Assembly (NCBI GenBank): GCA_028753945.1
Contig: JAPNXP010000003.1
Location: forward strand, 1,984,001-2,048,000
Direction of reading: 5' to 3'
From: Hexactinellida sp. DTS-2022
Lineage: Eukaryota; Porifera; Hexactinellida
Length of the DNA: 64,000 nt
The notes under the pieces are model-generated. The model did no database searches and had not been told where the DNA came from. It saw nothing but the letters and a program-made list of their open reading frames with translations. Position 1 is the first letter of the stretch. Each line of letters opens with the position of its first letter. Positions 1 to 56,044 of this stretch are shown in pieces. A program made the translations under genes and the position numbers.

Positions 1-1100
1 AAACCCGGGCTCGTGAGACAAAATTCTGGGCCCTCTTTTTATACTCTATTTGGGTCCGCCGCCCGGGAGATAATTAGTAATGGCTATACAAATATATATT
101 TTATCCCACCATAATATTATTTGGGCTAACGATTCAATATATCTTACATAGTTTCCCTAGTGTTTTCTTTCTTATTTCTGATAATATAGTAAGTACCATT
201 ACTACGTATTTGAGTAAAACTTTGTGTCACTAATTTGGATTAATTACGTACGGGGTGTGCACCTTGAGGTTCATTTTATCCGACACTATCTGACACTACA
301 ATCAGGGGTTTATCTAAGATTTTCTTGGCTGGAACTTTATTATGGAGGTAAAATTTCCCGGTACCCTGAAGGTGTAAGCCATACTACATGATCTGTATAA
401 TTCAATGATTCTGCATTGAAGGAGGTAAGGTTAGACGGTACCCAAATATGGGTTTATCCAGCCATTTCTAGACCGGAAAATCTGGCCAGACACCCGGCAC
501 CTAATTAAGTGCCAACCCGGTACCTAAATCGAATCACACATCATGTACTTTTTAACCACAAGAATTGTCTGGTCGGCATCTAAAAGTTCGCCAGGTACTT
601 AAATAAACGCCTGACTACAATATCACTTTGTGAATTTTCATTGTTTATTTCAGAGTAATTACGTTTTAATTAGTTACAGAACTAGATACCATAGCAATGG
701 ATAATTGGTTGTCAAGATCAGTACACCTGGAACCAGACATCACAATCAATCTTCCTAAAACACTGCCAAAAAAGCCTAAATTGGATCGGTGAACAGAAAA
801 TAACCGTGAACGAATGTTCAACAAGGATTGGAAGTCCTCTATTTCTTGAGTGAACAAGATGGCAAACCTAAGTATTTATTGTGCTTTGATATAATTAATT
901 AGTATTTGCAAACTATACAATGTGAAGTGCCAATATTAGTCTCTTCATAAAGATAGCGATGAGAAGTTTCCTATTGAGAGTCCTGAGCGTTCTTAAAGGG
1001 TGATATTTTTAAAGGATCAGCTGAAATAACGAACCAAAGGTTTTAATAATGACAATGTCCGACTTTAAAATAATCACTTTAGCATCCTTTAACGTCCCTT
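1..1100. other. Gene-less flank
   Basis: AT-rich sequence with no convincing exon, TIR pair or RNA gene. Short ORFs on either strand here look like chance. Confidence 0.5.
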
Positions 1101-7075: not shown

Positions 7076-8230
<1,155 letters not shown>

Positions 8231-12566: not shown

Positions 12567-12656
12567 TCCCCTGGCCAGAGCTTCATAGTTGATGGACTGC
12601 AACCTGGCATGTAGGTGTGAAGTGACCGTCTAATTTGCACCTGGGGTTACGATTTT

Positions 12657-16091: not shown

Positions 16092-16093
16092 TT

Positions 16094-17044: not shown

Positions 17045-17169
17045 TAAAAAATCCAAAATTGCAGACTGTGCCGACCATGTTCCTTTGGTGGCACTATATT
17101 TTGTTGTTTGTTTATTGATAGTGCCTCCAAAGGAACATGCTATCGGCACAGTCTGCAATTTTGGATTTT
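17045..17169 (-). repeat. Satellite hairpin 3, arms flipped
   Basis: Same foldback, but here the GGTGGC arm is on the left and the GGAGGC arm with the extra base is on the right. That is the reverse of its neighbours in the same array. Confidence 0.88.
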
Positions 17170-18472: not shown

Positions 18473-18597
18473 AAAAATCCAAAATTGCAGCTAGTGCCGA
18501 CAGCATGTTCCTTTGGAGGCACTATCAATAAACCACCACCAAAATATAGTGCCACCAAAGGAACATGCGTCGGCACAGCTGCAATTTTTGATTTTAT
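18473..18597 (+). repeat. Satellite hairpin 4
   Basis: Standard orientation, GGAGGC arm left, spacer with AAACCACCACC, followed by a type B leader. Confidence 0.9.
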
Positions 18598-19686: not shown

Positions 19687-19807
19687 AAATCCAAAATTGC
19701 AGCCTGTGCCGACAGCATGTTCCATAGGAGGCACTATCAATAAACCACACCAAAATATAGTGCCACCAAAGGAACATGCGTCGGCACAGGCTGCAATTTT
19801 GGATTTT
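19687..19807 (+). repeat. Satellite hairpin 5
   Basis: Standard orientation, followed by a type B leader. Confidence 0.9.
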
Positions 19808-29104: not shown

Positions 29105-30079
29105 CTGACGGGTTAGTGATGCTTTACTAGTTCTTGTGATTGCTTCACATGCATCAATCCAGGAGACTATGCGTTCTAAAAAGAGGAGGCGAGGATCATC
29201 CTTGACAAATGTCTTTGATAAGGCGTCATTCAATCGGGTTCCCTTCTGGGGTGTACTAACATTGAATATTTTCCATATGTTTAAAATAATAGATACAAAT
29301 TCTGCCGTCTGCGTTTGGAAGTTAGGATTTCGTGCGTAATTTTGAATTTTCAAGCCAGCGATAGTAGATTCGTTAAATACCTTGAAAGCTAATTCACGCT
29401 CTGACGTTCAAAACTGGTGGGCCAACATGATTTTGCTGTCAGCTGAGTAAGAGGATGTTTTATTTGTTCAATTGAAATATCATCAATAGAGGGAAAAATA
29501 AAGGTGTAGTTAAAATCTTTGGTGTTAAGCCAATTGTTCCGAATAGATTTTATTATATGAACGGCATCAAATAAAAGGAGAAGGTTTCGATTAATATCAT
29601 ATGGATGAGGAACAATATGACTGAGTGTTCTTTGATCAATGGAAAACATCTTGAAGATATTTACATTTTGAGGGTAGTTATCTGAACATAGTACCTGAAC
29701 TAATAAAGCACATTTTTTGATGTCACCAATTACAGATTTGATAGTGAGGAACAGTTCTGAAGCGTTGGTGGATGAAAGCGGGAATAATCGAACGATTGTT
29801 GACCACTTTTTGTGGAGACTCGAAACCATTATTGCTAAAACTGTATTTACAGGATCTCCTGAGTCCATTGTAGGTGCGATGATTTTTCCACCTTTGTATG
29901 TGATATCGGATTTCACATGAACTTCATCAATTTGGACAATAACGTTCTTTTGCTGAGCTGAGAAGTCAAGTGTAGAGTTTTTTAGGAAGTTAAAATATTC
30001 GCTTTCCAATCCAATAGGTCGATAAAGTCTCTGTAATGTGTGGAAATGTGGTAGGGATAAACAATTGAGTGATTGTAAG

Positions 30080-30355
30080 CAGTGGCGGACACTAGGGGGG
30101 CGAGGGGGGGCAGTCGCCCCCCCCAATAATTTCGAAAGAATAAAGTTTAAAGAAATTTGAGTCAAAAAGTGGAAACAAAGGAATCTTTTACTTCAAAAGT
30201 GGAAGGAGTGCGTACAAATTGTAATATAAACAACAACACCAAAATAGCATAATTATATAGCGAAATTGAGAAAAGACACTACTAATAATACTGAAAGTGT
30301 GATGAGTCCCAATTAATTTCGCCCCCCCCTATATTTCGTCAAGTGTCCGCCACTG
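30080..30355. mobile_element. hAT MITE, CAGTGGCGGACACT ends, in P copy C
   Basis: Perfect 14-base TIRs with an exact 8-bp duplication attgtaag at 30072-30079 and 30356-30363. It is 276 bp and interrupts the codons for TYLQSLNC of the P transposase. Confidence 0.97.
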
Positions 30356-34063: not shown

Positions 34064-34502
34064 CTTTAGAATAACAACTGTTTTCCTGAAATGGAGACAT
34101 CCACAACAAGAACAAACATACGTTGGACCTTGTGATATCTTGGAGAATAACTTTGAATAACAGTTAACCTCCTCCTTATTAGTGTTGTGCTTTTCACGCA
34201 CATCAGGATCCTTCAACCTCTCTGCTACAGCTTTATTATGCTCAGCACGCTTCTCAGGGTCCTTCAAACTCTCGGCCACAGCTTTATTATGCTCAGCACG
34301 CTTCTCAGGATCCTTAAACCTCTCGGCCACAGCGTTATCATCCATTGCGCGCTTCTCAGGATCCTTCAACCTCTCTGCTACAGTGTTATTATGCTGAGTA
34401 CGCTTCTCAGGATCTTTAAAACTCTCGGCCACAGCTCTATTATGCTCAGCACGCTTCTCAGGATCTTTTAAACTCTCTGCTACAGCGTTATTATGCTGAG
34501 AA

Positions 34503-35164
34503 CAGTGGCGTAGCTAGGGTTTCGGGGGCCCCGGTTCAAAAGTATGTACCAGGGCCCCTGGCCCCACTAGTTCAAATTGGAGTAGTATATTTTAAGGAGG
34601 TTCGCGGCATGCATCTGGGTAAATTTGGGTTCGGAAATGGCATTTCCCGCATTTTGACGAAGTAGATTGAAGTATATCTGCATATGGAGAATTTTGGAAC
34701 ATTTGCATACCTGCCAACCGTACAGGGATTTGAACCATTTTGGCTGTTTTGTACTGGCGTACAGGGATTTTTAATTTACTAATTATGAGTCAAATAATGC
34801 CTAAAAAATGTCTACAGTGATGATAGTATATTCTGCCATGCATTCTGCATTGACCACATAAAGGCACAAGTTGGTTTATATATTTATTCAAGCGTACAGG
34901 GATTCCCTGTACAGTATATAATTCAATGCTTTTTCCTTTCCAAAGTGACAATTTTTATATGTAAGTGTATATAATTTCTTGGACGAGCGAGCGCAGCGAG
35001 CGAGAAAAATTTTTGGGAGGTGTATAGGGATTTTGGCCAATGTACAGGGGAAAATTTGAGCCCTGTACAGGGATATGACACAAATAGGTTGGCAGGTATG
35101 CCTTTGGGGGCCCCCGAGACATCGGGGGCCCTGGTTCAATGAACCGCCTATTGCTACGCTACTG
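34503..35164. mobile_element. hAT element, CAGTGGCGTAGCTAGGG end, with nested MITE
   Basis: TIRs CAGTGGCGTAGC and GCTACGCTACTG. The duplication gctgagaa/gctgagca differs at one base. It splits the tandem 17-residue repeat coding region. The inner element at 34706-35100 accounts for 395 of its 662 bases. Confidence 0.9.
34706..35100. mobile_element. Nested element, CATACCTGCCAACC ends
   Basis: Perfect TIRs CATACCTGCCAACC and GGTTGGCAGGTATG. GCGAGCGCAGCGAGCGAG and several GTACAGGGATT repeats lie inside. Related pieces occur near 28764 and 33470-33790. Confidence 0.85.
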
Positions 35165-35639
35165 GCTGAGCACGCTTCTCAGGATCTTTCAAACTCTCGG
35201 CCACAGCTCTATTATGCTCAGCACGCTTCTCAGGATCCTTCAACCTCTTTGCAATGCCTTGTAATTGATTTTCGTTGTGCTTAGATAGAAAATCGGGATC
35301 CTCACAATCTTCATTAAAACGCTCAAGACGAGCCTCATTCTCAGTTTTACAAGACTCTGAGGCATCAGTTCTTCTCTTCTTCATAGCAGCTTGATTTTTA
35401 TCTTTTCTAGCCCTGTACCCTTTTCTCTTCCGAGACTTAGGTGTAGAGATACCCTTCTCAGGAGTCATTGGGACATCAGAACACAGGCTAGACAAATCCA
35501 GGTCGTTTAGAGGTACAACTTGAGATGATATCGGAGTATGTTGTACCGTTTGAGAAGAGAATATAAACACATCTGTCTGGGAACATTCCTCTATCTCCAT
35601 AGAACAAATCTCTTTCTCTGTTGTTGAACCTGGCCCGGG

Positions 35640-36200
35640 ATTTATTTCGATCCCACCGATCTTAATAAGGCGCTGATTATGTTAGCATGTAGAAATGCGC
35701 CAAAATATGTCGATACATATGGTAAACTTCCTGATAATATAATGGGGTAACTGGGACCTAGCATGTCCACCCCAGCCACTGATTCTTGCTCTATAGAGCT
35801 CAATTGAAATCATATCTAATTAATGTAATAAATATAAACGAAATATAAAATATAAATACAATACAGACAGCGTTTTTACTATATTTTGTATAAAGATTTG
35901 ATGTTTGTTTTAAATTTTGTAGTAAAGCTTCATACACATAAATGCTAGTTGTAAATGTAAATAGTGAGAACGAAAAAGATAGGTTATTAATAACAGAATA
36001 TGAAAAACATTAGTTTTAAAAATATAAGTTAAATCACAATGATTAAAATGAATAAAGTAAAAATAATAATGTCAGAAAGTCAAATCTTGAATCAAGATAG
36101 AAATTCTTGAATTTTACTTGAGAACTATACAAATGGAAAACATAATCTAGAATAGAAACCTGTAAGCAGCAATATAAGTTTAATAAATAAAACAATAATT
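35640..36200. other. Gene-less stretch
   Basis: AT-rich. It holds no recognisable gene or repeat boundary before the inverted satellite array starts. Confidence 0.45.
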
Positions 36201-38217: not shown

Positions 38218-39302
38218 TCGCCATGTCATCATCACTTTGAAGGTGTTAAATTATTTCAAAAAGGTGTTTCAAAAGGCAACGACCCTTAGTGAGTTGAAGT
38301 TTCGTTTTAGCTCACTTCATTTTAGAGATATTCAAGTTTGAGTAGAATATAATAGCTGATGGCTCAGCATTTTTGTGTGAGTGTTGGGTCATCACCCAAC
38401 ACCAACTAACCAATTTTAAATGTCGAATTAACAAAATTGTAAAAACACATTTTTTTAACGATGTCATCATCACCTCAAGGTGTCAAGACCCACTTGTATA
38501 GGTGGCATGTACCATGAGGACCAATTGATAAATTGAAAGTTTGTTTCTATCTTCTATGATCTTTGAGATTTATGATATTTAATTAATTGTATAAATAATT
38601 ATTTATATTATTTGTAATTTAACACCAATTTCAATATCAACTTATATTTATTAAGTTTAATTATTTTGTCATAAATAATAAATAAATTAATTTGGCTATC
38701 AAATTTCAATTCCGCACACTCGATAACCCCTAATAAACAAATTGGGAGCATCTATATAAGTCATATACTGACTGAATTAATTATAATTAATTACGTCAGT
38801 ATATTAATAGTGCAAGAGTACTCGCAGAGGTAAATATAATCACATAATATGTCGTTGTTATGAAATATATAATCTTAGTTTTCAATCGGAAAATAGAAGC
38901 CTACTCGATCTCACAAGTTGAATCAATATAATAATAACGAGTTGAAACAATAGAATTATATTTAACACTTTCAATTGAACTGAAGTGGTAGTAAACAAAT
39001 GAAATTTGCAACTCAATTGTGGCACAAACGAAGCCGAATTTCAAAATTCGTGTACTGTGAAAAGGTGTAGAATTTAATTCTCTATCGAATGCAAATAAAT
39101 TAAATATCTGGGCACCATTTATTGTTCCTTTTCTAACATTAAACAGTTTAAAAATGTGTCCAAAAAAATGTAATCAAAAATCGTGACGCCAGGTGCACAT
39201 CTGTAACCCATGAGACACATATTCTTAAAATTTGGGCTCTTAGTTAATTAAACTCTGTTCTGTGGAGAGGATACGGAAGGATAATTACTAACCAAAGCAC
39301 TT

Positions 39303-39610
39303 AGACCAATACTGGGCGACTATACTATAGTATAGTCGGCACAGTAATAATAACTAACCAAAGCTGTAAGATTAGAACTGGGCCACTTTACTACTATAGT
39401 ATAGTCGGCACAGTAATAATAATATACCAAAGCACTATGACGAATACTGGGCCACTATGCTATAGTATAGTAGTCGGCACAGTAATAAAGTCAGTCATTT
39501 CAATACTGGGCCACTCTTCTATATAGTCGGCACAGAAAAATATAAATAATAATAATAAAGGTTGCATTTCAATACTGGGCCAACCAACCATACTAAAGTA
39601 TAGTCGGCAC
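39303..39610 (-). repeat. Five palindromic ~62-bp repeats, reversed
   Basis: Reverse-complement units of the form CTGGGCCACT...AGTATAGTCGGCACAGT. Several palindromes are degenerate, with deletions in the ACTATACTATAGTATAGT core. They lie between a type B leader and a hairpin. Confidence 0.9.
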
Positions 39611-39627
39611 AGTAATAAAAAATCGAA

Positions 39628-39745
39628 AATTGCAGCTGTGCCGACGCATTTCCCTTTGGTGGGACTATCTTTTTATGGCTAGCGGTTGGGTAATTGATAG
39701 TGCCTCCAAGGAAAATGCTGTCGGCACAGGTAAACTTTAGATTTT
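39628..39745 (-). repeat. Satellite hairpin, degenerate
   Basis: Same foldback with a changed spacer (GGCTAGCGGTTGGG) and mutated arms. Confidence 0.82.
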
Positions 39746-40329
39746 TGCCTTCTCATCATCACTATGAAGGTGTTAAATTATTTCAGAAAGGTATTTCAGA
39801 AGGCAGCGACCCTTAGAATGGTGGAAGATTCCATTTAGCTCACTTCATTTTAGAGATACGGGTATTCAAGTTTCACTAGAATATAATTGTCATGAGTCAG
39901 CATTTTCATGTGCGTGTTGGGTGATCACCCAACATCAACCAACCCATTCGAATTATTTAATTTCTAAAATTGTAAAACACATTTTTCAACGATGTCATCA
40001 TCACCTCAAGGTGTCAACACCCATTTGTAGAGGTGTTAGGTGGCATAAGGATCAATTGATAAATTGGAAGTTTGTTTCTATCTTGTATCATCTCTGAATT
40101 AATGTTATTTATCAAATTTTTATAAATAATTATAAATATTATTAATAATTTAACACCCATTTCAATGTCAACTATAATTTATTACGGCTTACTTATATAT
40201 CCTATATACCGGCGACTACTTAAATATCGGCGAGATATGCTTAGATATCGGCGACTACTTAAATATCGGCGAGATTTGCTTATATATCGGCGGCCGATAT
40301 ATAAGTAAGACGAATTTATTAAGTTAAAT

Positions 40330-41104
40330 TACCGTATTTATTCGAATAGTAGCCTAGGCGATTATTGTTTTTTAGGCCATTTTCTGACCAATATTTTTTA
40401 TGACTTTTTGAGAATATCACATGTTGATACATCATACAATTTATTTAGTACTAGCGCGCATCGCATGCTAAGTCGCTTCGCGGCAGAACACAACCACACA
40501 CCAACCGCTTCGCGGTTGGTGTGTGGTTTATATACTCCTAATATTGATTATAAAGCGTAAATAGGCCTAAATAGTCAAATTTAACAATGTGAAATTTAGT
40601 GATTACGTCATCATGCGATAATGAGTTAGCATAGTGGCGATCTGGTGTAACCAACGTGTCCGCATCATTAATGTCCATGTTCTATTAAATTTTCAGATAT
40701 TTATCTCTTAGGAGGCGCGAATTATGTGCGATTAAGTGACTTTTCAGGGTTCTCTAAATGTGACAATGACGTCATAACTTTTCGAGGTGTGATAAATTTT
40801 GAGTGGAAACCTCAACTTGTTGGCGGGTGCCAAAAGTTACCCCTATATGCCAAAAATCACATTTTGAAATCTTCCACTTTCTTCAATCAACTCGTAACAA
40901 ACAAACAAATATATATATACACACACTACACCCAGGCTTGTGTTTTAATAGTATAGATAGTCGGTTGATAATCGTATTACTACTAATATTATATTAATTA
41001 ATTTACTCAGGGTATCGGTAGTAAATTTTTATTTGCTAATTGGGGGTGCTATTGTTGGAGGTAGGCGATTATTCGAATAGGGGCTACTATTAGAGTATAT
41101 ACGT
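40330..41104 (-). mobile_element. CCGTAT-ended element split by a Helitron
   Basis: The left end begins ACCGTATTTATTCGAATAGT. The right end, reversed, gives ATATACTCTAATAGTAGCCC. Without the 507-bp Helitron it matches the copy at 61229-61492 in reverse. Confidence 0.82.
40451..40957 (-). mobile_element. Non-autonomous Helitron, copy 2
   Basis: On the minus strand it starts TCTATACTATTAAAACACAA (40957) and ends GCGATGCGCGCTAG (40451), between host A and T. A near-perfect palindrome CACACACCAACCGC/GCGGTTGGTGTGTG lies about 50 bases from the 3' end. It is 507 bp, non-coding and clearly homologous to copy 1. Confidence 0.9.
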
Positions 41105-42895
41105 ATTTGTCAAAATGGTAATTTATATTAATTTGGATACCAAATTTAAATTCCGCACACTCGATGACCCCTAATAATCAAATTGGAAGCATCTACGTAT
41201 ATCATATGTCAAATATAGACCGAGTTAATTATAATTAATTACATCAATGTATTAATATGTTTAAGAGTGTTCTTGCAGAAGGAAATATAATCACATAATT
41301 TGTCGTTGTTATGGAGTATGCAATCGTATTTTTAATTAGAAAATCGAAGCCTACTCGATCTCACAAGTTGAATCAATATAATTATTACAACTTTAAACAA
41401 TAGAATTAGATTTAACAGTTATAACAAAGAAATTTCAACACCCGTTTATGGCATGAATTAAACGCTTTATGAAATTTGTTCTTCTCTCATCAGATGCAGA
41501 ATTTATGGTGAATCGAAATTTACATGTTTGCACTCTTTGATATATCCACAGACTGTATTCCTCTTGGTAGCTCGTTTTTATACTTTTACTAATTATTGTT
41601 CTTATTATACCAAAATTTATTGTATTTTGTTTAGTTGGTCTGCAATTCACATATTCCTTAGTTTTTCCTGAAGTTGTCTGCAATTCTGTGACATGTTTGA
41701 CTATTTGATATATCTACAAACGGTATTCCTCTTGGTTACTCGTTTTTTTACCAAAGGAACATGCGTCGGCACAGGCTGCAATTTTTATTTTATTATTTAT
41801 CCGTAGCTCATCCACAGAAGAGAGTTTTATTAACTAAGAACTTAAATTTTCAGGACAGGTGTCTCATGGGTTACAGATGTGCACCTGGGGTCACAATTTT
41901 TAACAAATCTTTTTTGGACGCATTTTACACCAGTTAATGTTAGAAAAGGATCAATAAATAATGAGCGAATGTTCAATTTAGATGCATTCGATAGAGAATA
42001 AATTATACACCCTTTCACAGAGCACGAATTTTCAAATTGGGCTTAGTTTGTCCCACAATTGAGTTGCAAATTTCCTTTGTTTACTAACACTTAAGTTCAA
42101 TTGAAAGTGTTAAATCTAATTCTATTGTTCCAACTTGCGATAATTCTAGTGAGATCGAGTAGGCTTCTATTTCAACTTGTTACATTTAACTATTTATATT
42201 ACACAATTAAATCACATATACAGATTTCCCTAGGTAATCGTTGTTAACTACAATATAAACTAAAGACTTGGGTTAAAATTACAACTAATTTAGCGATTGT
42301 ATCAGAGCCGGATTTAGGGTGTTGTGGGCCTAGGGCTGTTATTTTTATTGGGCCTATTTTTATATCTTTTATTTTTCCAATGATAGTCCCTACTTTACAT
42401 ATTTAAGCAGAAACAATGAAATAACATATTTTCTTCCATAATTACTATTAATTATTTGCTATTAATATAAACCAGTTCTTCGGTCTAGGTCGCACCGTGT
42501 CCTTTTTTCGTTGGTGTTAGACTATAAAACACAATTAACGGACGCTTCGCGACCTTACCAACCTCAAGAAATCACTCATAATAAAATAAGTTAAGCCTGT
42601 GAATTGTTAATTACACGTATATTATTTTATTCAGATTAGTTTGTCACCACAGACTACGTTACTATAGACTATTCACTGAATTTACCATGGATTACTTCAA
42701 GTCTAGTTACTTAGATAAGTCAAATCTAAAATATACTCTCTAATATTTAATATCATGCTTTGTATAGTTTAATAACTTGAATGATAACGAAATGGTTGCA
42801 TTCAACGATATTACGAATACTTGAACGCATACAATTAACTAATAATAATAAAATACATACTATCGAATTCACTTTGACTGCAACTTTAGTAGCTT

Positions 42896-42901
42896 TTTAT
42901 T
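42896..42901 (-). promoter_or_regulatory. Polyadenylation signal of transposon D
   Basis: AATAAA on the minus strand, 45 bases beyond the transposase stop codon and inside the TIR. Confidence 0.55.
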
Positions 42902-42945
42902 CGATCTTGTAGGATTGTTTAGGCCACGTTTAGAATTCAAATTTC

Positions 42946-44847
42946 TTATTTATTCTTCAATAAACAATTAGTAGTAGCAGAGAGAATTTGAGCCAGATAG
43001 TACATAAAAGGTTTCTGGCAGTCAGGACATTCATTTCTCCAGAATTCGAAACTAACAAATTCTATTCTAGATATCGCTAATTGAATTAAATCCTTTCTGT
43101 CTGATTCAGCAATGAATTGTCTCAACAAAGCTGGGTTCTGTTCAAGAATAGTAAGTATTTGCCATTGAATAGTAACTGCGCTTATTACATCATTGGATGG
43201 GTATTTAAGTCCACCCCGGTCAGCTAAGTGAATTAGTGTAAGATCGGACTCTTCACACTCGAGAGAGAAACATTCTAGTTCAGTGAGTAGAGATACACAA
43301 TGATTACAATATGTTGTGAATTTAGACTTCTTTGAATAGAGCATATTCTTACAGATGTTGTGAACTGCATATCCACCAATAAAAGCCAATGCTTGGCGGA
43401 TTTCCACTGTAGGTGAGAATTCAAAATTTTCATGTAGAAGAGAAGAATAAATGTTCAAGTCTGATTGGCGAACTCCAGCATCCTGTTGAACTGAAAAACC
43501 TCTAACGAATTCCTTTAGTGACGACTCATATTTGCCATCTTGGGCTTGGTACAACTTCAGAATGTTACCAATCTTGATCCGTCGCTCGCTCTCAAGAACT
43601 TGACAAAAGGAAACGTTGTATTGGCAACCAGACATTAGCCGGTAAACACCAAAATGCTTCTCTAGAGAGTCGTTTTGTAAGAATCCGGTTAACACATAGG
43701 AAAATCCACATTCATCGCTGGTCAAATGATTGATAATTTTAGGAATTACTTTAGTAGTGTGAATTAAGCTGGTAAAGGTCTGTGGGCTAAGTTTGCCGGC
43801 TTTTCCTGTACAGCTATGTATTTTCCAGTTCTCAAGCCAAGAACAAAATTTTGCAAGAAATTCAAAACGTTCATCTTGGTGTTTGAATACTTTGGAATCA
43901 GAATCACGTAGACGAATATCTTTACCAGGACAATGAATGTTGCACATCTTCCAAAATCTGGATATAAGATCGATAAATTGATGAGTCTGGTTGAAAATTT
44001 TGTTTCTCTGGTTGAATACAAAGATAGCGTTGTGTGTTGATTGATCCCAAACTGCTAGAGCTAAGGGTACACTTTGTCTCTCAAAGGTTGATGGCCAGAC
44101 TACTTGTGAAGTTAACTTGTGGGCTGTCTTAGCATTTGAAAATTGCTCGAACTTGTACAAGTTCCTGATATCCTGGAAAGAAGCCGTTGCTAGTTGATAA
44201 GGAAAGGTATTATTGAAATAATCAGTGATAGATGGGAAAATAAGCGTGGTAAGGGGATCTTTCTGATTTATCCAGTTATTCCTAATACATTTAACAATAT
44301 GTACTGGATCGAACATCAAGAATATAGCTCGAGTGGGATCAGCTGGGTTCGGAAAACTAAACTGCAAGTTAGATGAATTAGCTAACGATTTGAATAAACT
44401 CACGTTCAACTGGTAATCGTCAGTGCAGATTGCTATTACCTTTAGGCCACAACTTTCGATGTCTATAATTACTTGATTAATTACTGGAAGTAATTCAGAA
44501 GATTTAGCATTACAACATGGAAGGAGTCTTACAATTTCGGACCATTTGGTGAAGAGACTTGAAATTTGAAAAGCCAAAACAGTTTTAGCTGGATCCAGGT
44601 CAGAAGATTGGCTGACAGACGTGATGGAATCGGAATTAATAAAAGGCGAACCAAAGATTCTTCCTCCCTTGTAGGTATACTTAGACTGTACGTGAATTTC
44701 ATCAAGTTTTAAAATAACATGTCTTTTGAACTTATCAAAATTCTGGCACTCAACTTTCAAATAATCAACAAAATTTGTATCTAAACCAATGTTAGAATAG
44801 AGTCTTCTGAGTGTTGAAGGATGGGGTAAACTAAGACAATCCAATGA
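42946..44847 (-). CDS. P-like transposase D, catalytic and C-terminal domains
   Basis: It is in the same frame as the upstream THAP ORF, separated from it only by one TAA codon at 44848-44850. Counting the TTG (44844) as residue 1, the RNase H-like DDE residues appear to be D48 (LKLDEIHVQSKYTYKGG), D142 (ICTDDYQLN) and E395 (LQNDSLEKHFGVYR). Conserved blocks between them are FDPVHIVKCIRNNW, WPSTFERQSVPL and TFTSLIHTTKVIP. The C-terminal helical domain runs from LAFIGGYAVHNICK to NCLLKNK at the stop. No frameshift is seen over 633 codons, so the copy is young or selected. In P elements this domain cuts both strands at the TIRs and joins them to target DNA, with GTP as cofactor. Without a start codon of its own it would need readthrough or a suppressed stop. 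Confidence 0.92.
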   Translation of the reverse strand, partial: SLDCLSLPHPSTLRRLYSNIGLDTNFVDYLKVECQNFDKFKRHVILKLDEIHVQSKYTYKGGRIFGSPFINSDSITSVSQSSDLDPAKTVLAFQISSLFTKWSEIVRLLPCCNAKSSELLPVINQVIIDIESCGLKVIAICTDDYQLNVSLFKSLANSSNLQFSFPNPADPTRAIFLMFDPVHIVKCIRNNWINQKDPLTTLIFPSITDYFNNTFPYQLATASFQDIRNLYKFEQFSNAKTAHKLTSQVVWPSTFERQSVPLALAVWDQSTHNAIFVFNQRNKIFNQTHQFIDLISRFWKMCNIHCPGKDIRLRDSDSKVFKHQDERFEFLAKFCSWLENWKIHSCTGKAGKLSPQTFTSLIHTTKVIPKIINHLTSDECGFSYVLTGFLQNDSLEKHFGVYRLMSGCQYNVSFCQVLESERRIKIGNILKLYQAQDGKYESSLKEFVRGFSVQQDAGVRQSDLNIYSSLLHENFEFSPTVEIRQALAFIGGYAVHNICKNMLYSKKSKFTTYCNHCVSLLTELECFSLECEESDLTLIHLADRGGLKYPSNDVISAVTIQWQILTILEQNPALLRQFIAESDRKDLIQLAISRIEFVSFEFWRNECPDCQKPFMYYLAQILSATTNCLLKNK

Positions 44848-45786
44848 TTACAAATATCTGTAACAACCAGAAGATATCAATTGAGCTTTAAGGGAGAAGA
44901 CTAATGTCAAGACGTTATAGCGACGTCTTGTTTTCGACATATCTAAGTTTTCGAGCTGACAGAGAATAAATTGCAAACGATTAAGTAAAGTTTGAGAATC
45001 ATGTATTGTGGTATCTTCGTTAGTTGTTAACTTTCCTACTGTGTACTTAACACTATCGATAGCTTTGGTGATTCCTAACTCAATATCATCTGGCTTTTGA
45101 TACGTGTCGAGTTCTTGTATTAATTGAGAAATTTGACGCATGTCAGTAATCTGAGAAATCCGTGTTTGAATTTGTACCTCGTTAAGAAAACATTTGACAT
45201 TCAATTCTTCATTTAATATTATCTGGTGAGACATTATTAGTAGATGTCCAGACAAGATTTTCTTGAAGATGTGCAGGGTAGTTGGACTAGAGCGAAAATA
45301 TAACCATTCTTCATACAAGTTTAAAATTGTATATTTCTGTTGCATTTCATCAATGCTCATCACGGAGTACTTTTCATTCTCTGTTTGGTGTTCAGCAATA
45401 CTCAACTGAAGCGCTTGACGAAAATGTCGGATATCTAATTCATCGCGGTCAAGACGTTCAGGAAGTACATTTTGATCTTGTAAGTAAGATGGGCAATTTG
45501 GTAGAATAGTAGGCTTAGCACCCTTGCGAAGACCAGGCTTACGGGGAAAATTCTTGATAGAACCATCGCCTTGAGGAATTGCAACAGAAAGTAACAGGTC
45601 CTGCTCACTAAAATGTTTAGCGCAGATGAAAATTCTGCACAATTGCCAGGCATCATCTCGATGTAAAAACTTTTTCCAATCATCTTGTACATCCTTTGGC
45701 CAGTGATGTAACATCTCAAAAATAGGAGTGTATTCAGTACCATCATAATTAGAAGTGCAATTAGCAACACTACACCTGTTTGGCAT
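44848..45786 (-). CDS. P-like transposase D, THAP and coiled-coil N-terminal part (312 aa)
   Basis: The ATG at 45786 gives MPNRCSVANCTSNY. The C2CH THAP zinc site is C5, C10, C55 and H58, with W37 and the tail GAKPTILPNCPSYL. A linker domain (IDEMQQKYTILNLYEEWLY, ITDMRQISQLIQELDTY) has heptad-like Leu/Ile spacing and may dimerise. It ends with TRRRYNVLT...CYRYL and then TAA. All other copies that cover this site (C, E, F) have CAA (Gln) after YL, so the stop is a C-to-T change. The product would be THAP plus a dimerisation region without catalysis, the same architecture as the Drosophila P 66-kDa repressor. Expression is unknown. Confidence 0.9.
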   Translation of the reverse strand: MPNRCSVANCTSNYDGTEYTPIFEMLHHWPKDVQDDWKKFLHRDDAWQLCRIFICAKHFSEQDLLLSVAIPQGDGSIKNFPRKPGLRKGAKPTILPNCPSYLQDQNVLPERLDRDELDIRHFRQALQLSIAEHQTENEKYSVMSIDEMQQKYTILNLYEEWLYFRSSPTTLHIFKKILSGHLLIMSHQIILNEELNVKCFLNEVQIQTRISQITDMRQISQLIQELDTYQKPDDIELGITKAIDSVKYTVGKLTTNEDTTIHDSQTLLNRLQFILCQLENLDMSKTRRRYNVLTLVFSLKAQLISSGCYRYL

Positions 45787-47295
45787 GATTCTAGTATATA
45801 TAAAAATGAAAGAAAAGATAAATAAAGAGTAGAAGCATAAAAGAGTAAGTGGTGTGGTAAATAGAAAGGCACAAAGAATGTGTAGAAAAGAGATTGATCT
45901 AGACTGAATGGTAGTAAACTTATATTCAAATATTGTGGGTGGTTTACAAAATAGAGTTGAAGTAATCCATGGTAATGGAAAATCAATCAGTGAATAGTCT
46001 ATAGTAACGTAGTCTGTGGTTTGTCACAATTTGGGAGTCAAGGCAATTCAACTTATCGATTAAAATGCTATTTAATACCAAGATTTTCCTCCAGACAATA
46101 AATTGTTGGATCAATATGTCATTTACAATGCAGAAGATATATGCGGGTAAATCGTTGAACATCTTTGATAGTAATATCATGCATAATTATGTGATTGACG
46201 TAGCAAAAATAAATCACCAATAGAAGTAATTGATGTAAGCCAAACTGGATTAATCAAAGTATGCAATCTCGGAAAAATGTAGGGGAAGATTAAATCTACA
46301 AAACACAATTTGAGCCATGAGGAAGCAGTTGGAGGTGCGTTTTTGATAATATCTGCGCAGATCAAAAGTGAAAATTGTTAAATTTTGAAGAGAAATACAA
46401 TACAATATATATTATAATGTGACAAATTTGTGTCGTCTGAATCAAAATACTAGGAGTCAATCCAAATTAGTTCCTACGTGAGGCAATAATCCCATAAATC
46501 GTACGTGTGCTTCATTTTATCCTGCTTTGTCATCTAAAATTGTGGCGATTCGGACAAAAACTAATTAGTTATTCCTAAATACACTAAACTTCCTATATCC
46601 GGGCACTTTTAACGAAGGGTGCCCGTAACTGGCAATTTACCCGCATCTCAGAAAGTGTCTTGTCAATATTTTTATCATTAAACGTGATTATAGTAATGAG
46701 TACTTGTTTAGTTTGAGTATCATCAATAAGGGTGCCCGTTTGGAAGGTTGATGTTATGCGCTTTTAAGACTTCAGAATGCCGATATTTTGTTTGGAAGAC
46801 GTTAAGACCAATTCATCGTTGTGAACGTCTAAAATTACCCTTGCATGCCAATTTGTATTTTCTAGAGCATATTGTATTCCCTAACAATTCTAGACTAACA
46901 CACACAAAAGCAGACAACAATTGTGCTTTTAATATATGGATAGATAACTTTTATTGCTAAAAATGTCACGAAGTACTTATGTACCTGGTGTTGCTAAAAT
47001 TTTATTGAAACATCGGGTTTAGCTCATGCAAACTATTCATTATATTTTGAAAAATTTTCGGCGGAAACTAGTTTCTACTCCCAAATCAATCCCATTTCCT
47101 GGCCAAGTTGACCTAAACTGGGCCTAAGAATGAAGTGGGCCTAGGGCTTTAGCCCGAGCAGCCCTATTGTAAATCCGCTACTGGATTGTATACTTGCTCA
47201 TACTTGTTATTTTTATTTGCAATTTTAGTGTGCTTCTTCTGGTAAAAACGTTATAGTAGGGTCTTACTATAGTTTTATACTACTATAAGTGCACA

Positions 47296-48649: not shown

Positions 48650-51189
48650 ATGAATTCTACTGAATTTGGAGAAATTGTCAAGTTCCTTGAAAGTGGTTGC
48701 TTTCCTGAAAAATTGAAACCTTCCGCTCAAGGACAATGGAATTTCAAGAGAAGGGCAGGAAATTATACCCGTTCCGAATCTAGACACCTGTATAAAGTAA
48801 GTTGATCCTCCTCAATATAATATCCACATTATAATGCACCTATCAATTATAGCCCCAATTCTCCCCAGTCTTGGGCAACTATGATTATCATAGTGTAAAA
48901 TTGGAATGGAAAAAGAATTGATTTTTGCAATAATTTAGTAGAAACACTTCAAAATTGTTTATTGTTTACAATCCATTAATCTTTTATTAGAAAATCGTTC
49001 AGAATGGAAACGAGTTGAGGTTTCAAGTTCCTATTCGAGAAGATATTAGTCAAGTTTATGAACAATATCACGATTCACTTGGTCACCCTGGGATAAATTC
49101 CACTCAACAAGCAATCAAGCAGAGATACACTTGGCCCGGGATGTATGTGGTAAATTATGTAAGTAATTTTGATGAATTACGATTTTACATCTTGTTTATT
49201 AATTAACTCGAAAACATCATTAACTTCGCAGCAATTGTTGAAAATCCTCATGATATGTTATTATAGGTGAAATCTTGTAACATTTGTCAACAAACAGCTG
49301 TGCTACCACCTAATCCTCAAAAGAAGCTGCAACCTATTCCACCTCCAAATGTTCCATGGAAACATATAGGGATGGATCTAATATGCGATCTCCCTGAAAC
49401 ATCAGATGGCTACAAACACATTCTTGTTACTGTGTGTTACCTTTCTAAGTACGTCGTCGCTCGAGCACTCAAAAATAAAACAACTATTGAGGTTCTAGTT
49501 CAATTGGAAGATATCTACCTCGAGCTAGGATTACCCGATATCATTCAATACGACCAAAGGAAGGAATTTACATCTAAGGTACTTATGCTAAATTAATTAG
49601 AATTATATACAATAATATCTTTGTACTACATTTAGTAAAGTTCTACTACCTAACTGACATATTTGTATAATTATCATATTCCTAGATATTTCAGGAGTTC
49701 CATCACAAATTGAATGTTCAAAATCGCAGTACTCGAGCATACCACCCAATGGCGAATGGATTGGTTGAGGCTCATAACAAATACTGAAAAAGTAAGATTT
49801 TTAGCATTTTAAATAATTAGTTTCGAGATTTATCTTTAATTGTAATACAGTGGAATCCGCTTAATTGATAGGGAGACGGATTAACAACGGGTATTCTGCT
49901 TAATCGGTACAAATATTTAGAACGGATTCTTATCTTTGAATTATCTTCGTTAATTGGGACTCAACATCTTAACTGGGAGAAAAAGTATGCTCCCGAGGTG
50001 TCCCAGTTAAGCAGCTTCCACTGCAATACTAATTATTTCCCTAGTACAGGTGTGTGCAACCTCTCTTAACACTGGGCCGCATTGTGCTTCTCAGATCTGT
50101 TCACGGGCCGCGATTCGGATAGTTTTCGAATCTTCAGATTTAGATTAGAAGAAAACATTGTTTAAATTTTGAATAATTAGAATGATTAAGTGTTTAGACT
50201 AAGAGAAATATTTTCACAAGGTCACATATGTGTTCCTTAGTGTGAGATCTGTGATTGTTAGGATTACTTCGCGGGCCGCAGCACAGAGCGTTGCGGGCCA
50301 CATATGGCCCGCGGGCCGCAGGTTGCACACCCCTGCCCTAGTAAGTTGAACAAGATGCACATTCAGTGTGGAAAGGATTGGACTCAACTTCTAAAATCCG
50401 CTGTGCTTTGCATGAACTCAACGTTCAAAAAGTCTCATGGCACTACACCATTCAGAATTATGTGGGGTAGAGATTCTCGGTATGAAGAACTTGTCCCATT
50501 CGTCAGCAGTGTATCAGTGTCTGCAGAGGAGGATGTTGATGAAGAAGAAGCTATCTTTTCTCTATGCGACTTTCTTGCTGAAAAAGATGAAGAAGACATT
50601 TTCTCTCCCCCAACTGAACACCCAGATGATTCCATTGCTGCACTGACGGAATATCGTGATACCACGTGCAAACTTGCTGGTGAAAATATTATGATTAAGC
50701 AACTGAAGCAAAAGAGGCAGTATGATAAATAAAGTGACTCAAAATAGGTTTGTTAGCAAGCACTAATTGCTTCTTTTACGTATGTAATATAGGGAATTTC
50801 TGTGGAAAATGTTTCAAAATTTATTCATTTGATTGTAATAATTTGGCTTGTTCATTCACCCAGTATCTGAAATGTAGTACGGAAAATAGATACATTCGAT
50901 CAATTTCGATCAAAGTACAATACTAAATTTAGTTCACTGCTTGGTGTTAATTAACTTGACTTGATTGTAATTATATAGATCTGAGATACACGAGGGTGAT
51001 GAAATTCTGTATACTAACATGCCCAAATTAAAGAAAATGCCTAATACTAAGCAACAGGAGAAATATATCGGTCCATTTACTGTCTCGCGGCTAACAGATA
51101 GCCATGCCTTCATTCCAAATACCAAAGGATTGAAAAAGGACAAGAAAATTCCGATCGATCTAGTTCGAGCAGTGACCTACGTAATATAA
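48650..51189 (+). CDS. Six-exon integrase-like gene (DD35E), ~440 aa, one in-frame TGA
   Basis: Exons 48650-48796, 48991-49158, 49267-49578, 49686-49792, 50342-50719 and 50979-51189 all have GT-AG borders and keep one frame. The protein has an N-terminal stretch (MNSTEFGEIVKFLESGCFPE), an H2C2 zinc-binding domain (YHDSLGHPG ... CNICQQ) and an integrase core. The core triad is Asp in IGMDLIC, Asp in IQYDQRKEF and Glu in NGLVEAHNK, with 35 residues between the second Asp and the Glu. A C-terminal domain follows (IHEGDEILYTNMPK, YIGPFTVSRL). This is the arrangement of Gypsy/Ginger-derived genes such as GIN1 and KRBA2. No protease, RT or LTR is nearby. A TGA at 49786-49788, just after the core, is the only defect. 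It may be a Ginger-type transposon gene or a once-domesticated integrase now decaying. Confidence 0.8.
49848..50023. mobile_element. pogo-type MITE in integrase intron 4
   Basis: Ends CAGTGGAATCCGCTTAATTG and inverted CAGTTAAGCAGCTTCCACTG. TA on the left, CA on the right. It is 176 bp. Confidence 0.85.
50047..50335. mobile_element. hAT MITE at the intron 4 splice acceptor
   Basis: Ends CAGGTGTGTGCAACCT and inverted AGGTTGCACACCCCTG, with GC-rich GGGCCGC repeats inside. Exact 8-bp duplication ccctagta at 50039-50046 and 50336-50343. The duplicated sequence contains the acceptor AG, so exon 5 still begins directly after a ccctag. Confidence 0.95.
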
Positions 51190-51219
51190 GGCCATGACAC
51201 AGGATGTTAAATTTGGACT

Positions 51220-52357
51220 GTTGTATGACAGTTTTACTACCATGACAGACTTACTACCTCTATTACTAGTACCATGGATGTTCTCTATCCATGACAGATT
51301 TACTACCTTACATGACAGAATTACTACCCTTTGATCATGACTTGACTATTACTATGCACTTTTAATGGCTTCTTTCTTTCTTCTACTTGACTAAATACAG
51401 ACAGCATGTATTCAATATAGGAAATATTTACTTGTATCTTTAAAAAAAATTATTGAATTTGACTTGCTCAATTATCTATATAATTGACATTTCCACATCC
51501 GCCTTCCCCGTATTCATTATTCACTAGGTAAATTATTATGTATAGCATTGTGAACGGTATAGCAAATAGATAATTATTCTAACATCGGAGATAGGAACTA
51601 TTAATGGATTTAACAATACATAACCTATGGGAAATCTGAGAATATATTAGCTGTCAAAAACCGTATCGCTCTACTCAATAATAATTGCATCACTGAAGCT
51701 GTCTGCGTAAAAAGTTGTAGTACGACTATGTATCATGTCAATAACTTCACCACGTTGATAGCCTGAGGCACGCACTTTAAAATTTCGTCTCGCGAATTTT
51801 GTTGAGTTCAATAAATCGCTCGGCAAAATAACATGGGAAAGAAAATTCACAAGCTTTGAATATTCAGAGATATTCATTATTGTATGTGATTTCTTGAATC
51901 AAGACTATAATTTGTGTACTTTCTTAAATCGATGAGTAGAATAGATAATATAAATGAATTACCATTTCCTAATATTTTGAATACCTGCTGTTCATAGGCG
52001 TCGTAAATGCAAAGGTCAATCCTTCGGGCCGCCCGGATATTCCGGGTAAAGTCCGGGTATAGCATTAGTAGCATAGGGGCAACCCTTCCGGGCCGCCCGG
52101 ACATTTCCGGGCACCCGGGCGGGTTACGACGCCTATGCTGCTGTTTGTATTTAGTCAAGTAGAAGAAAGAAAGAAGCCAATAAAAGTGCATAGTAATAGT
52201 CAAGTAGAACTAAGAGTTGCGTGATGAGTACTCAAGTCAAGATCAAAGGGTAGTAATTCTGTCATATAAGGTAGTAAATCTGTCATAGATAGAGAACATC
52301 CATGGTACTAGTAATAGAGGTAGTAAGTCTGTCATGGTAGTAAAACTGTCATACAAC
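51220..52357. mobile_element. 1.1-kb inverted-repeat element nested in the left TIR of E
   Basis: Arms of about 200 bases begin GTTGTATGACAG and contain repeated ATGACAG.TTTACTACC motifs. GGACT flanks both sides. It is non-coding and hosts the 145-bp MITE at 51993-52137. Confidence 0.85.
51993..52137. mobile_element. GC-rich 145-bp MITE, copy 1 (intact)
   Basis: TIRs CATAGGCGTCGTAA and TTACGACGCCTATG, exact 8-bp duplication ctgctgtt at 51985-51992 and 52138-52145. The interior is rich in CCCGG/CCGGG repeats. A damaged copy lies at 27014. Confidence 0.95.
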
Positions 52358-52724
52358 AGGACTAAGGATATGTTACCAGGCCGACCCTATATTGAACAAA
52401 GATTGGATGTAATATTTTTTGTTGTTGAATGTCTTGTTATGGGTTTATAAAAAATGCTTGTTAATTACCTTTTTGAGTAACCATAATGTGCTAGAATAAT
52501 TTCTATCAATGTCTTTGCATTATGTCTACTGTCACATTTTTATATTGTTTACTATATATTGTGTTACTATCACAATTATTTTACGCACATATTCCCTACC
52601 ATGCTCCACAATTTATTTATTATGATTGTACAAATATAATGTTTTTTCAAGATCTTTTAATCCATTACTCTTGCTTGTAGTTTATTATTCTCTTGCCAAC
52701 TTATTAGCTAATCAATATTATATT

Positions 52725-55621
52725 ATGCCTAACAAATGTTCAGTGCCGGGTTGTACAAGCAATTACAGATTCGCCCATGTTCCTAGTCCACCCCATGTTC
52801 CTGTATTTACACCACCTACGAGTCCTCCAGAGCGTGTACATGTATGGCTACGAGCGATTCATCGTGAAAACATTTCTGACTTAAAGAATGTATTTGTTTG
52901 TGTAAAGCATTTTCGTGAAGAAGATATCATTAGAAATTATAACGTCTTGCAGTCTGACGGTACCTATCGTGGTATACCTCGTAAAAAATGCAAATTATCT
53001 GACGATGCGGTACCATGCATTTATCCTAACTGTCCATCTTACCTTACTTCAATTCAAACAAAACCAGTTCGTTATTCTCGCGATGAGAAAGAGGCTGAAT
53101 TATTTGAAAAAGCGATCAGACAGAGTCTAGATCAACACGTTACAGATAAAGTAGCTTATACAATCGACTCATATGAGCAACTTATAGAAAAAATCAATTT
53201 ACTTCCTCTTCCTGAGGATTGGATACAGTGGAATTCTAACTCGAACTATGTACATTTTCTTATGCCAACATACTTCAATGAACAATTGGAACTAAATTCT
53301 TCGATAACAATTGATTCTTCACTCTACGTTAGGGCTAAACGTGGTAGCGTTACTGTTTCTCTTAGCGTCAATACCATCTGCGACACCAGACAAATCGAAC
53401 TCCTCAACGAAATAACAAGTTTTAAATTAACAACAGCGGAAGATCCGATTACAAATCAGTTGGATACATATGTCCATGAAGCAGCAGCTCAAATAAAATT
53501 AGCTATAGCCGAATGTGATTATTCAGACCAAGATTCAAAGAGTTTTAGTGGAAATACTTCATACAATCTTAACATGATTCAACAGAGACTGCAATTTATC
53601 CTCTGTCAAGTTGAAAATTCCCTCCGTTTCAAGAATCGTCGGCGATACAACATCATTACACAAGTTGTTGCTTTAAAGGTACACCTCATCTCTCCAGCTT
53701 GTTATAGTTATCTTCAATCGCTCGAGTGCCTTTGTTTACCGAATCAAAGGAATATATTAAAATTGTGTTCCAATATTGGCTTAGAGAGTGAATTTTCAAG
53801 TTATCTCGAAAAGTTACTTCTAATTTCACATCTCTTCAACGCAATGTTATCATCCACATGGATGAAATCCATATCAAATCAGACATCTCATACAAAGGGG
53901 GGAAAATCATTGGTTCTACGCTTAATTCAAACGAGCCCACCAAAACTGTTCTTGCTGTAATGGTATCCAGTTTGTATCGAAAATGGTCAGAAATTGTACG
54001 TCTGTTACCTTGTTCTAGCACCTCAGCAATTGAACTAAAGCCTATAATTACACAACTAATTGGCGATATAGAAAATTGTGGATTGTCCGTCCATGTTATC
54101 TGCACTGATAACTATCCTTTGAATGTTAGTCTCTTCAAATTATTTTCACCAGATCAAAAGACATTAACACCAGAAGTTATACACCCTTGTGATCCATATC
54201 GGCCATTGTTCTTGGTATTCGATTTTGTACATATTCTAAAAACCATTCGGAACAATTGGCTCAATCTTAAAGACTATCAGCGAACATTTGTGTTTCCCAG
54301 ATTCGAAGATTTCAGTGTTCTTAATACAGCTTCGTTTGAAGACATCCGCATGTTATACAAAACTAAACAACATTCTGTAGTTAAGCTCGCTCCTCGACTA
54401 ACTGCTAAATCGTGTTACCCTACAAATTTTTAGAGACAAAATGTAAATCTTGCCTTAAAAATTTTTGATGAGTCTACAGTTGGTGCTCTTTCTGTATTTT
54501 CGAATTCTCGTTCAACTATCAAATCACACACAACAGAATTTTTTTCCCTCATCCTTAATATTTGGAAAGTATTCAACGTCAATGTTCCAAATAAAGACAT
54601 ACGATTAAATGATGAATATTCAAAACAACTTGGACATAACGATTTTCGTTTTTTCTTTCTTTCCAAAGTAGTGGATTGGTTAGACTGTTGGTCATCAAGA
54701 TCAGAGAAAAATGGGAAATTATCAGCACAAACCTTCACTTCTTTTAAGCATTCTTGTATGGCACTTCCTAAAATCGTTAATTTTCTCACTGAGAATAGAC
54801 AGTTTCAATACGTGTTAAGCTCTCGATTACAGAATGATCCTCTCGAACATCATTTTGGGCTCTATCGCATGATGTCTGGCGCTCAATACCACATCAGTTA
54901 CTGTCAAATTCTGGAGTCTGAAAGAAGATTGAAATTGTCACATGTATTAAAATTGTTTTCCCAAAGTACAGAGACAGACACAAGTGATTGTAATTCACTA
55001 AAAGATTTTCTCGCGAATTTTTCAGGACAGACCACTGGACCCGGATACGAGTTAAATTTCTCCTTTGCTTTAGAAGATTACATGGTCGAAATGGATGACC
55101 TTTCTCGAATTGTTTTGAAAGACGAAATTTTACAGTCCCCTGTGTTCATCGCAGGCTATGCTGTTCATTCCTATATGAAATCGACTTCAAAATGTCAAGT
55201 ATGTTAAAAATTTCTTACAGAAGATAAAGATATGCTTTTTGATAACCCGAAATTTCAATTAATCAATGTAATAGACCGCGGATCCCTCAAATGGCCATCT
55301 AATATAGTTGTGGATTCCATTGTTATGGTTTGGAGATGCTTTTCAATAATAGAACAGAATGAACCTCTCTTGAAACTGTTTTCAACAGGTCCTTCACGGG
55401 AAATCCTAGTCCAACTATCCCTTACACTAATTGAACTAGACAGTAATGAAGAATGGAGAAGAAGCTGTCAAAATTGCAATACATTTGGTTGGGATATTCT
55501 AAGTAAACTGATAACAGTCACCAACAACTGTATTATTGCTAACAAAGTGAAAAACGTAAATTCAGTATTGTTGTCAAGAAGCGAAAATTGTAGGAAATTA
55601 AAGAAGTTCAAATTGAGTTAA
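52725..55621 (+). pseudogene. P-like THAP transposase, copy E
   Basis: The ATG at 52725 gives MPNKCSVPGCTSNY, with VFVCVKHFREED and DAVPCIYPNCPSYL completing THAP. Then come the linker (YEQLIEKINLLPLPEDW, DTRQIELLNEI), KNRRRYNIITQ without an intron, and YLQSLECL. The reading frame shifts near 53815 inside LEK/VTSNFTSLQRNV. The core has the first Asp in HMDEIHIKSDISYKGG, the second in ICTDNYPLNVSLFK and the catalytic Glu in LQNDPLEHHFGLYR. Stops at 54431 (TAG for the Glu of FERQNV) and 55205 (TAA for an expected Leu) break it. The C-terminus runs to NNCIIANKV and beyond. It is full length but inactive. Confidence 0.9.
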
Positions 55622-56044
55622 AATAGTATATAATAATTCTCTGTTCTAATAATCCTTTCCTAGTTCATTGTGTTACGTATAGAACATGCAACTGTACATG
55701 CGTATATCTGTTTTAATACTTTACGCTTCATAAAGAAGCTACATTATGAGGATAACCAATCAAATAAACTATTTGAATTGATTTTGTGCTTTTTAAATCC
55801 GGCCTGGTGACATATCCATAGTCCAAATTTCACATCCTGTGCCATGGCCTTATATTACGTAGGTCACGATATGATAATACACTCATTATCTCAAAGGTTA
55901 TTGAATTTAGGCCTATAAAATGCGCCAACTGTCTGAAATTACTGTCGAACTAACGCCCACTGTCTGAAATTACTGTCGAACTATTGCCAAATGTCCAAAT
56001 TCGAACTAATGACAACTGTCCAAATTCGAACTAATGCATGCGCC

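What the first reader, a model, noticed from the sequence alone, without database searches (positions are those of the whole stretch)
42648..46018. A complete P-element-like transposon with 31-bp TIRs and a near-intact THAP transposase
Perfect 31-base inverted ends, a flanking gtttgtcac repeat and a single transposase with an intact C2CH THAP finger, DDE triad and C-terminal domain make this a likely source element for the family. One nonsense codon is the only lesion seen over about 946 codons.
Basis: partly seen in the sequence, partly recalled or inferred. Interest (0 to 1): 0.85.

Follow-up and report, generated by a model that had tools for sequence, protein, structure and literature searches.

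The report
Jumping gene with unusual 9-base footprint
This is a real, complete but broken P-element-type transposon from a lineage that duplicates 9 bases of target DNA instead of the usual 7 or 8, which makes it a natural test of what sets that length.

Summary
The element is real: perfect inverted ends, a transposase with THAP and RNase H domains, and a flanking 9-bp repeat. Joined flanks of the window copy match uninterrupted (empty) sites elsewhere. It is not the source element: it has two early stops, and copies with uninterrupted frames exist.

The surprise is the 9-bp target-site duplication. Subfamilies A (window), B and C show an exact 9-bp duplication in 21 of 26 two-ended copies. 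Other P-type families of the same genome show 7 bp in 25 of 37 copies, 8 bp in 4, none in 8 and 9 bp in 0. Drosophila P gives 8, Galileo mostly 7. In both groups A/T-only target positions begin one base outside the duplication, so the middle seems widened by 2 bp.

The same clade (support 100/100) has a 12-13-residue insert after the first catalytic aspartate, and unequal ends: the subterminal ACCATGGA motif lies 9-11 bp nearer one terminus in 26 of 26 copies. Best filed as a new variant within the P superfamily. That these changes are mechanically linked is inference.

The parts
42648..46018 (-). whole element, 3371 bp (subfamily A copy; G000:C12:2026648-2030018)
   Evidence: empty sites
42639..42647 (.). 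9-bp target-site duplication, left copy (GTTTGTCAC)
46019..46027 (.). 9-bp target-site duplication, right copy
42648..42679 (+). terminal inverted repeat, gene-3' side (32 bp perfect)
45987..46018 (-). terminal inverted repeat, gene-5' side
42684..42705 (+). subterminal motif ACCATGGATTACTTCAAGTCTA, starting at position 37 from the gene-3' terminus (short arm)
45952..45973 (-). subterminal motif (one base different), starting at position 46 from the gene-5' terminus (long arm)
44848..45786 (-). transposase, first part: 312 codons and an early stop, found in no other copy aligned
42946..44847 (-). transposase, second part: 633 codons; ends early relative to L010, L013 and L047
45505..45774 (-). 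THAP domain (C2CH zinc finger; residues 5-94)
44383..44793 (-). TNP-like RNase H N-terminal domain
44701..44703 (-). first catalytic acidic residue (aligns with P D230)
44605..44640 (-). 12-residue insert found in the 9-bp clade only, among the rows aligned (12-13 residues across A, B, C)
44419..44421 (-). second catalytic acidic residue (aligns with P D303)
43660..43662 (-). third catalytic residue, E (aligns with P E531)

Best explanation
The window element is a recently inserted copy, now with a broken transposase, of a cut-and-paste DNA transposon of the P superfamily. It belongs to a lineage (subfamilies A, B, C) whose transposase joins the two transposon ends to target DNA 9 bp apart rather than 7 (most relatives here) or 8 (Drosophila P). 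Shown by sequence: the ends, the 9-bp duplications, empty sites, the broken frame, uninterrupted sibling copies, end asymmetry and the protein insert. Inferred: the THAP domain and neighbours bind the subterminal ACCATGGA motif; two transposase active sites cut and join with a 9-bp stagger; the insert and the roughly one-turn difference between the two ends belong to the same change in complex geometry.
For: Exact 9-bp TSD in 21 of 26 two-ended A/B/C copies, 2 more at one mismatch. Empty sites with one 9-mer for L012 (99.2% over 600 nt), L048 (99.2% over 487 nt), L034 and L045, and for the window copy, with 39 of 40 scored matches crossing the junction, the best at 99% over 300 bases. Internal control: of 37 copies of other P-type families, 25 show 7 bp, 4 show 8, 8 show none, 0 show 9. 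Target positions -3..-1 and 11..13 around the 9-mer are A/T in 122 of 126 cells against a background of 0.659; around 22 7-mers the strongest A/T positions are -2,-1 (43 of 44) and 9,10 (41 of 44), i.e. starting one base outside the duplication in both. Transposase profile matches P transposase 6p5a at 3.3e-23 and THAP structures; the three acidic residues are invariant in 12 of 12 rows. Clade support 100/100 with insert columns left out. B-C dN/dS 0.08-0.12. Motif spacing over the 65 ends that match an exact pattern gives stretches of 32-34 (33 ends) or 42-43 bases (32 ends), nothing between.
Against: Within A/B/C, L017 has an 8-bp duplication, L044 has three mismatches and the second L016 copy has none; the L026 site lies in a short tandem repeat, where 9 is not unique (14 also fits). 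The 7-bp sites prefer G at position 1 (15 of 22) and C at position 7 (16 of 22), which the 9-bp sites do not, so the target contacts are not identical. No biochemistry. The fold prediction was poor (mean pLDDT 41.8), so the insert cannot be placed in 3D here. All 9-bp families form one clade, so the association of 9 bp, insert and asymmetry rests on a single branch; a tree with the long-branched L053 and fewer columns gave that branch only 75/86. Two copies of an L076-type subfamily (L105, L111) also have asymmetric ends (37/47); one has an 8-bp TSD, the other no exact TSD, so asymmetry alone does not give 9.
Confidence: 0.9

Rival explanations
1. The window copy is the active source (master) element of the family.
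For: Perfect ends, intact THAP and catalytic residues; 99.5-99.7% identical to the four closest copies.
Against: Two early stops in this copy; other A copies are uninterrupted.
Confidence: 0.03
2. The enzyme still makes a 7- or 8-bp stagger and the 9-bp repeats come from mis-set termini or bases added in repair.
For: Other families in the genome and the known P superfamily give 7-8 bp; one A copy shows 8 bp.
Against: The repeats vary freely in sequence while termini stay fixed; close empty sites hold one 9-mer; the A/T target positions start one base outside the 9-mer as they do outside the 7-mer.
Confidence: 0.04
3. It is a domesticated THAP9-like host gene, not a transposon.
For: THAP plus RNase H architecture; its likeness to THAP9 is recalled and from abstracts.
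Against: Many dispersed copies with terminal repeats, target duplications and empty sites.
Confidence: 0.01
4. Mutator-type element, since 9-bp duplications usually point there.
For: Duplication length only; the Tetris paper assigned a transposase-less element to Mutator partly on 8-10-bp duplications (passage).
Against: Transposase matches THAP and TNP-like RNase H and aligns with P transposase; no Mutator-type domain among the Pfam matches.
Confidence: 0.01

Closest known systems
Drosophila P element (transposase structure 6p5a)
   Same: THAP at N-terminus, RNase H with D-D-E, about 31-bp inverted ends, unequal spacing between terminal repeat and internal site at the two ends (9 v 21 bp in P; PMC7776569, passages).
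   Different: 9-bp instead of 8-bp duplications; 12-13-residue insert after the first catalytic strand; one long open frame without the introns of P (P gene structure recalled); spacing difference 9-11 bp rather than 12.
Galileo (P superfamily)
   Same: P-superfamily transposase with THAP domain; palindromic, A/T-rich target motif (PMC4168063, passages; THAP in PMC3688188, listing and start of abstract).
   Different: In D. willistoni Galileo makes 7-bp duplications (8-bp in three copies) and has long, Foldback-like terminal repeats.
Zebrafish Pdre2 / THAP9
   Same: THAP transposase with terminal and subterminal inverted repeats (PMC10983969, passages).
   Different: 13-bp terminal repeats, 8-bp duplications, distant subterminal repeats.
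Other P-type families of the same genome (L049-L053, L074-L076)
   Same: Homologous transposase (25-41% identity to L013), termini starting CA or CG, and in most an ACCATGGA-like subterminal motif at positions 45-49.
   Different: 7-bp, sometimes 8-bp, duplications; ends symmetric in all but one L076-type subfamily among those read; no insert.

Membership tests
P superfamily (defined by transposase) | Transposase homologous to P transposase over RNase H | tested here: met
   profile to 6p5a E 3.3e-23; PF21787 in 12 of 12 rows and in the window copy
P superfamily (defined by transposase) | N-terminal C2CH THAP domain | tested here: met
   PF05485 E 2e-8 in the window copy; THAP structures matched
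P superfamily (defined by transposase) | D-D-E catalytic triad | tested here: met
   D362, D456, E709 of L013 invariant in 12 of 12 rows, align with D230, D303, E531; catalysis itself not tested
P superfamily (defined by transposase) | GTP-binding insertion domain | tested here: inconclusive
   PF21788 found in 6 of 12 rows at E up to 0.1 but not in L013; the region aligns with 6p5a
P superfamily (defined by transposase) | Terminal inverted repeats with direct target duplications | tested here: met
Drosophila P / Pdre2 type proper | 8-bp target duplication | tested here: not met
   9 bp exact in 21 of 26, 8 bp in 1 of 26
Galileo type | 7-bp target duplication | tested here: not met
   0 of 26
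Drosophila P / Pdre2 type proper | GTP-dependent cleavage with 17-nt stagger | not testable with these tools
   needs biochemistry
Mutator superfamily | MULE-type transposase | tested here: not met
   no such family among the Pfam matches

The most novel reading that the evidence does not exclude
One lineage of P-superfamily transposons re-engineered its transposition complex: strand-transfer spacing widened from 7 to 9 bp, with an insert after the first catalytic strand and one transposon arm shortened by about one helical turn, the three changes being mechanically coupled. The in-genome contrast makes the determinant of target-duplication length directly testable by swapping the insert and the arm spacing between 7-bp and 9-bp enzymes.
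Probability: 0.35. Interest if true: 0.8.

Novelty: new variant of a known kind. Interest (0 to 1): 0.56.

Why it matters
Target-duplication length is used as a clue that tells transposon superfamilies apart (so stated in PMC4079207, passage). A 9-bp P-type lineage shows that the number can shift inside one superfamily, so transposase-less elements with 9-bp duplications need not be Mutator. It also offers a controlled comparison, 7 v 9 bp in related enzymes of one genome, for asking what sets the distance between the two active sites, and whether unequal transposon ends (as in P and, by the analogy drawn in PMC7776569, the 12/23 signals of V(D)J recombination) can arise from equal ones.

Tried and rejected
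Source-element reading: rejected (two stops; uninterrupted copies elsewhere). Conserved stop, retained intron or readthrough (as P's third intron, recalled): rejected, since the stop is absent from the four other A copies aligned there. Mis-set terminus: rejected by empty sites. Viral carriage: 82 pattern matches in viral contigs, none a relative. Fold model of the 633-aa piece from 7 window rows: too poor to use, so no fold search was run. Rfam on the window at gathering thresholds: no match. L052 gave no convincing ends and is in no duplication count. Literature searches for a 9-bp P-type duplication: 0 papers; 15 papers, 14 listed; 2 papers: a Mutator/Foldback family, listing only; Tetris, passages read; 0; 2; 55,800 papers with either term, 20 listed, none of those 20 with the 9-bp phrase. 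No P-superfamily case seen; papers read were seen as passages only, and most subscription papers are not held.

Full report
OBSERVATION. An inverted repeat of 34 nt (100% complementary) joins 42646-42679 and 45987-46020. Its outer two bases belong to the flanking repeat, so the element runs 42648-46018 with 32-bp perfect ends. GTTTGTCAC stands on both sides. The transposase lies on the minus strand in two open pieces, 312 (from the first Met of the THAP frame) and 633 codons. The first holds a THAP domain (PF05485, E 2e-8), the second a TNP-like RNase H domain (PF21787, E 3.5e-15).

COPIES. The window is G000:C12:1984001-2048000 of a 112.4-Mb genome in 18 contigs. Subfamily A copies are mostly 95-100% identical to the window copy over long matches, with an older one (L020) at 85-90%. 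Two further subfamilies, B and C (about 70% nucleotide identity), share the termini. The TIR pattern hits 91 places with at most two mismatches, 0 in the reversed control.

BROKEN COPY. The window copy has an early stop after residue 312 and ends 26 residues before the C-terminus of L010. Other A copies (L010, L012, L013, L014) are open at the first stop; L010 and L013 reach the shared C-terminus (972 and 975 aa from the first Met), while L012 and L014 have altered C-termini. B copies L029, L035, L036, L037 (977 aa) and C copy L047 (974 aa) are also uninterrupted. Pairwise differences among the five closest A copies, window included, are 0.27-0.47%, so spread was probably recent. B v C dN/dS is 0.08-0.12; dS is saturated for A v C and could not be computed for A v B.

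NINE-BASE DUPLICATION. One search listed 31 copies; five with a lost or altered end (L015, L018, L020, L025, L046) were dropped before the count. Of the 26 left, 21 have an exact 9-bp duplication, 2 have 9 bp with one mismatch (L012, L042), L017 has 8 bp, L044 has three mismatches, and the second copy in L016 has none. One of the 21 (L026) sits in a short tandem repeat where 14 also fits. Empty sites with a single 9-mer were found locally for L012 (99.2% over 600 nt, in L011, within the stretch that interrupts the A copy there), L048 (99.2% over 487 nt), L045 and L034, and with more mismatches for L041 and L039; some more diverged repeats aligned there with gaps. For the window copy itself, joined flanks minus one repeat gave 40 scored matches out of 232 candidates: 39 cross the junction, 28 span all 300 bases, the best at 99%, and the fortieth is the window's own right flank. 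So the element sits in a high-copy repeat.

IN-GENOME CONTROL. Seven other P-type families with identifiable ends gave 7 bp in the copy first read (L049, L050, L051, L053, L074, L075, L076). That search demanded an exact repeat, so it could not score failures; L052 gave no ends. Ten more copies, found by offset, gave 7 bp in 3, 8 bp in 3 (three loci with identical flanks, probably one event) and none in 4, two of which lacked a recognisable right end. Twenty more, taken as pairs of TIR matches (some short, internally deleted elements by their length), gave 7 bp in 15, 8 bp in 1 and none in 4 (two of these had 1 and 2 mismatches in 7). Together: 25 of 37 with 7, 4 of 37 with 8, 8 of 37 with none, 0 of 37 with 9. 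The families and pairs were chosen by me, not drawn at random from the 150 listed transposase matches or from the TIR hits.

TARGET SITE. Around the 9-mer, positions -3 to -1 and 11 to 13 are A/T in 122 of 126 cells (21 sites; flank background 0.659; binomial 1e-17, which ignores that the positions were picked after looking). Around the 7-mer (22 sites: 15 and the seven first-read copies) the strongest A/T positions are -2 and -1 (43 of 44) and 9 and 10 (41 of 44), with 18 of 22 at -3 and 15 of 22 at 11. In both groups the A/T positions begin one base outside the duplication, so the middle differs by 2 bp. This fits a wider distance between the two active sites rather than altered cutting at each. 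The groups also differ: 7-mers prefer G at 1 (15 of 22) and C at 7 (16 of 22), 9-mers show no such preference.

ENDS. A subterminal motif, ACCATGGATTACTTCAAGTCT in most A/B/C ends, starts at position 46-47 from the gene-5' terminus but at 36-38 from the gene-3' terminus in 26 of 26 copies (difference 9-11 bp). A pattern search with no mismatch allowed gave 65 ends, 33 with stretches of 32-34 and 32 with 42-43 bases. In the seven other families the spacing is equal at both ends (difference 0, or -1 in L076); in L053 the motif is only 6/8 and may be chance. Of twenty further copies 14 are equal, 4 differ by 1-2, and two (L105, L111, one L076-type subfamily) are asymmetric (37 v 47); L111 has an 8-bp duplication, L105 none. 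Drosophila P has 9 v 21 bp at its two ends (PMC7776569, passage).

PROTEIN. The profile of 12 transposases matches P transposase 6p5a (E 3.3e-23) and THAP structures. D362, D456 and E709 of L013 are invariant in 12 of 12 rows and align with D230, D303, E531 named in PMC7776569 (passage). A, B and C carry 12-13 residues more than the other families just after the first catalytic strand. The three window relatives with a piece that covers that place lack it too. By alignment and RNase H topology (recalled) this is the hairpin between the first two strands; the fold prediction (mean pLDDT 41.8) is too weak to show it. The A/B/C clade has 100/100 support with those columns left out and L053, a very long branch, removed; with L053 and fewer columns it was 75/86.

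MECHANISM. Most likely a cut-and-paste P-type transposon: the THAP domain and helix-turn-helix region recognise the subterminal motif, two ends are paired, excised and joined 9 bp apart, and gap repair makes the duplication. Cut-and-paste, GTP use and motif binding are inferred from P (PMC7776569, passages). The link between insert, arm spacing and stagger is a correlation on one branch.

NOVELTY. In the passages read, P-superfamily duplications are 7 or 8 bp. No 9-bp P-type case turned up in the searches named in Tried and rejected; the library is partial. I rate it a new variant within the P superfamily.

Noticed in passing
G000 genome-wide: Very large P-type expansion: 150 scored matches to PF21787 (the cap) out of 928 first-look candidates, several with open frames over 900 codons.
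   Followed up: partly
3924-5016, 12036-12629, 29389-30192, 51171-55868, 63103-64000: Further P-type remnants in the same 64-kb window. The one at 51171-55868 has about 30-bp ends resembling the L050 type and a broken frame; the one at 12036-12629 has no Pfam match and is assigned by eye to the C-terminal region.
   Followed up: partly
L016 (G000:C16:1487330-1496469): Two A copies in opposite orientation, 377 bp apart, differing by 0.06%. The spacer ends are inverted copies for about 17 nt, but the spacer as a whole is not a palindrome (132 of 377 positions); origin unclear, an assembly effect is possible.
   Followed up: partly
L105/L106 and L111/L112: A subfamily of L076-type elements has asymmetric ends (motif at 37 v 47) like the 9-bp clade; one copy has an 8-bp duplication. 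Possible second origin of asymmetry.
   Followed up: partly
G000:C1:15252166-15260195: Two L049-type copies head to head with identical flanks and 8-bp duplication, and a third with the same flanks at C1:15372803-15376647: probably segmental duplication.
   Followed up: no
12652-20655 and 38450-40911: Repeated blocks (e.g. about 3-kb offset between 14.4 and 17.5 kb, with 63-68-bp tandem units) that include candidate empty sites for B and C copies.
   Followed up: no
7076-8230: HECT domain open frame, nearest among solved structures to WWP1 and WWP2 ubiquitin ligases (best E 1.4e-188), which suggests an animal host.
   Followed up: no
34203-34500: 51-bp tandem repeat near an open frame (35154-35681) that has no Pfam match.
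   Followed up: no
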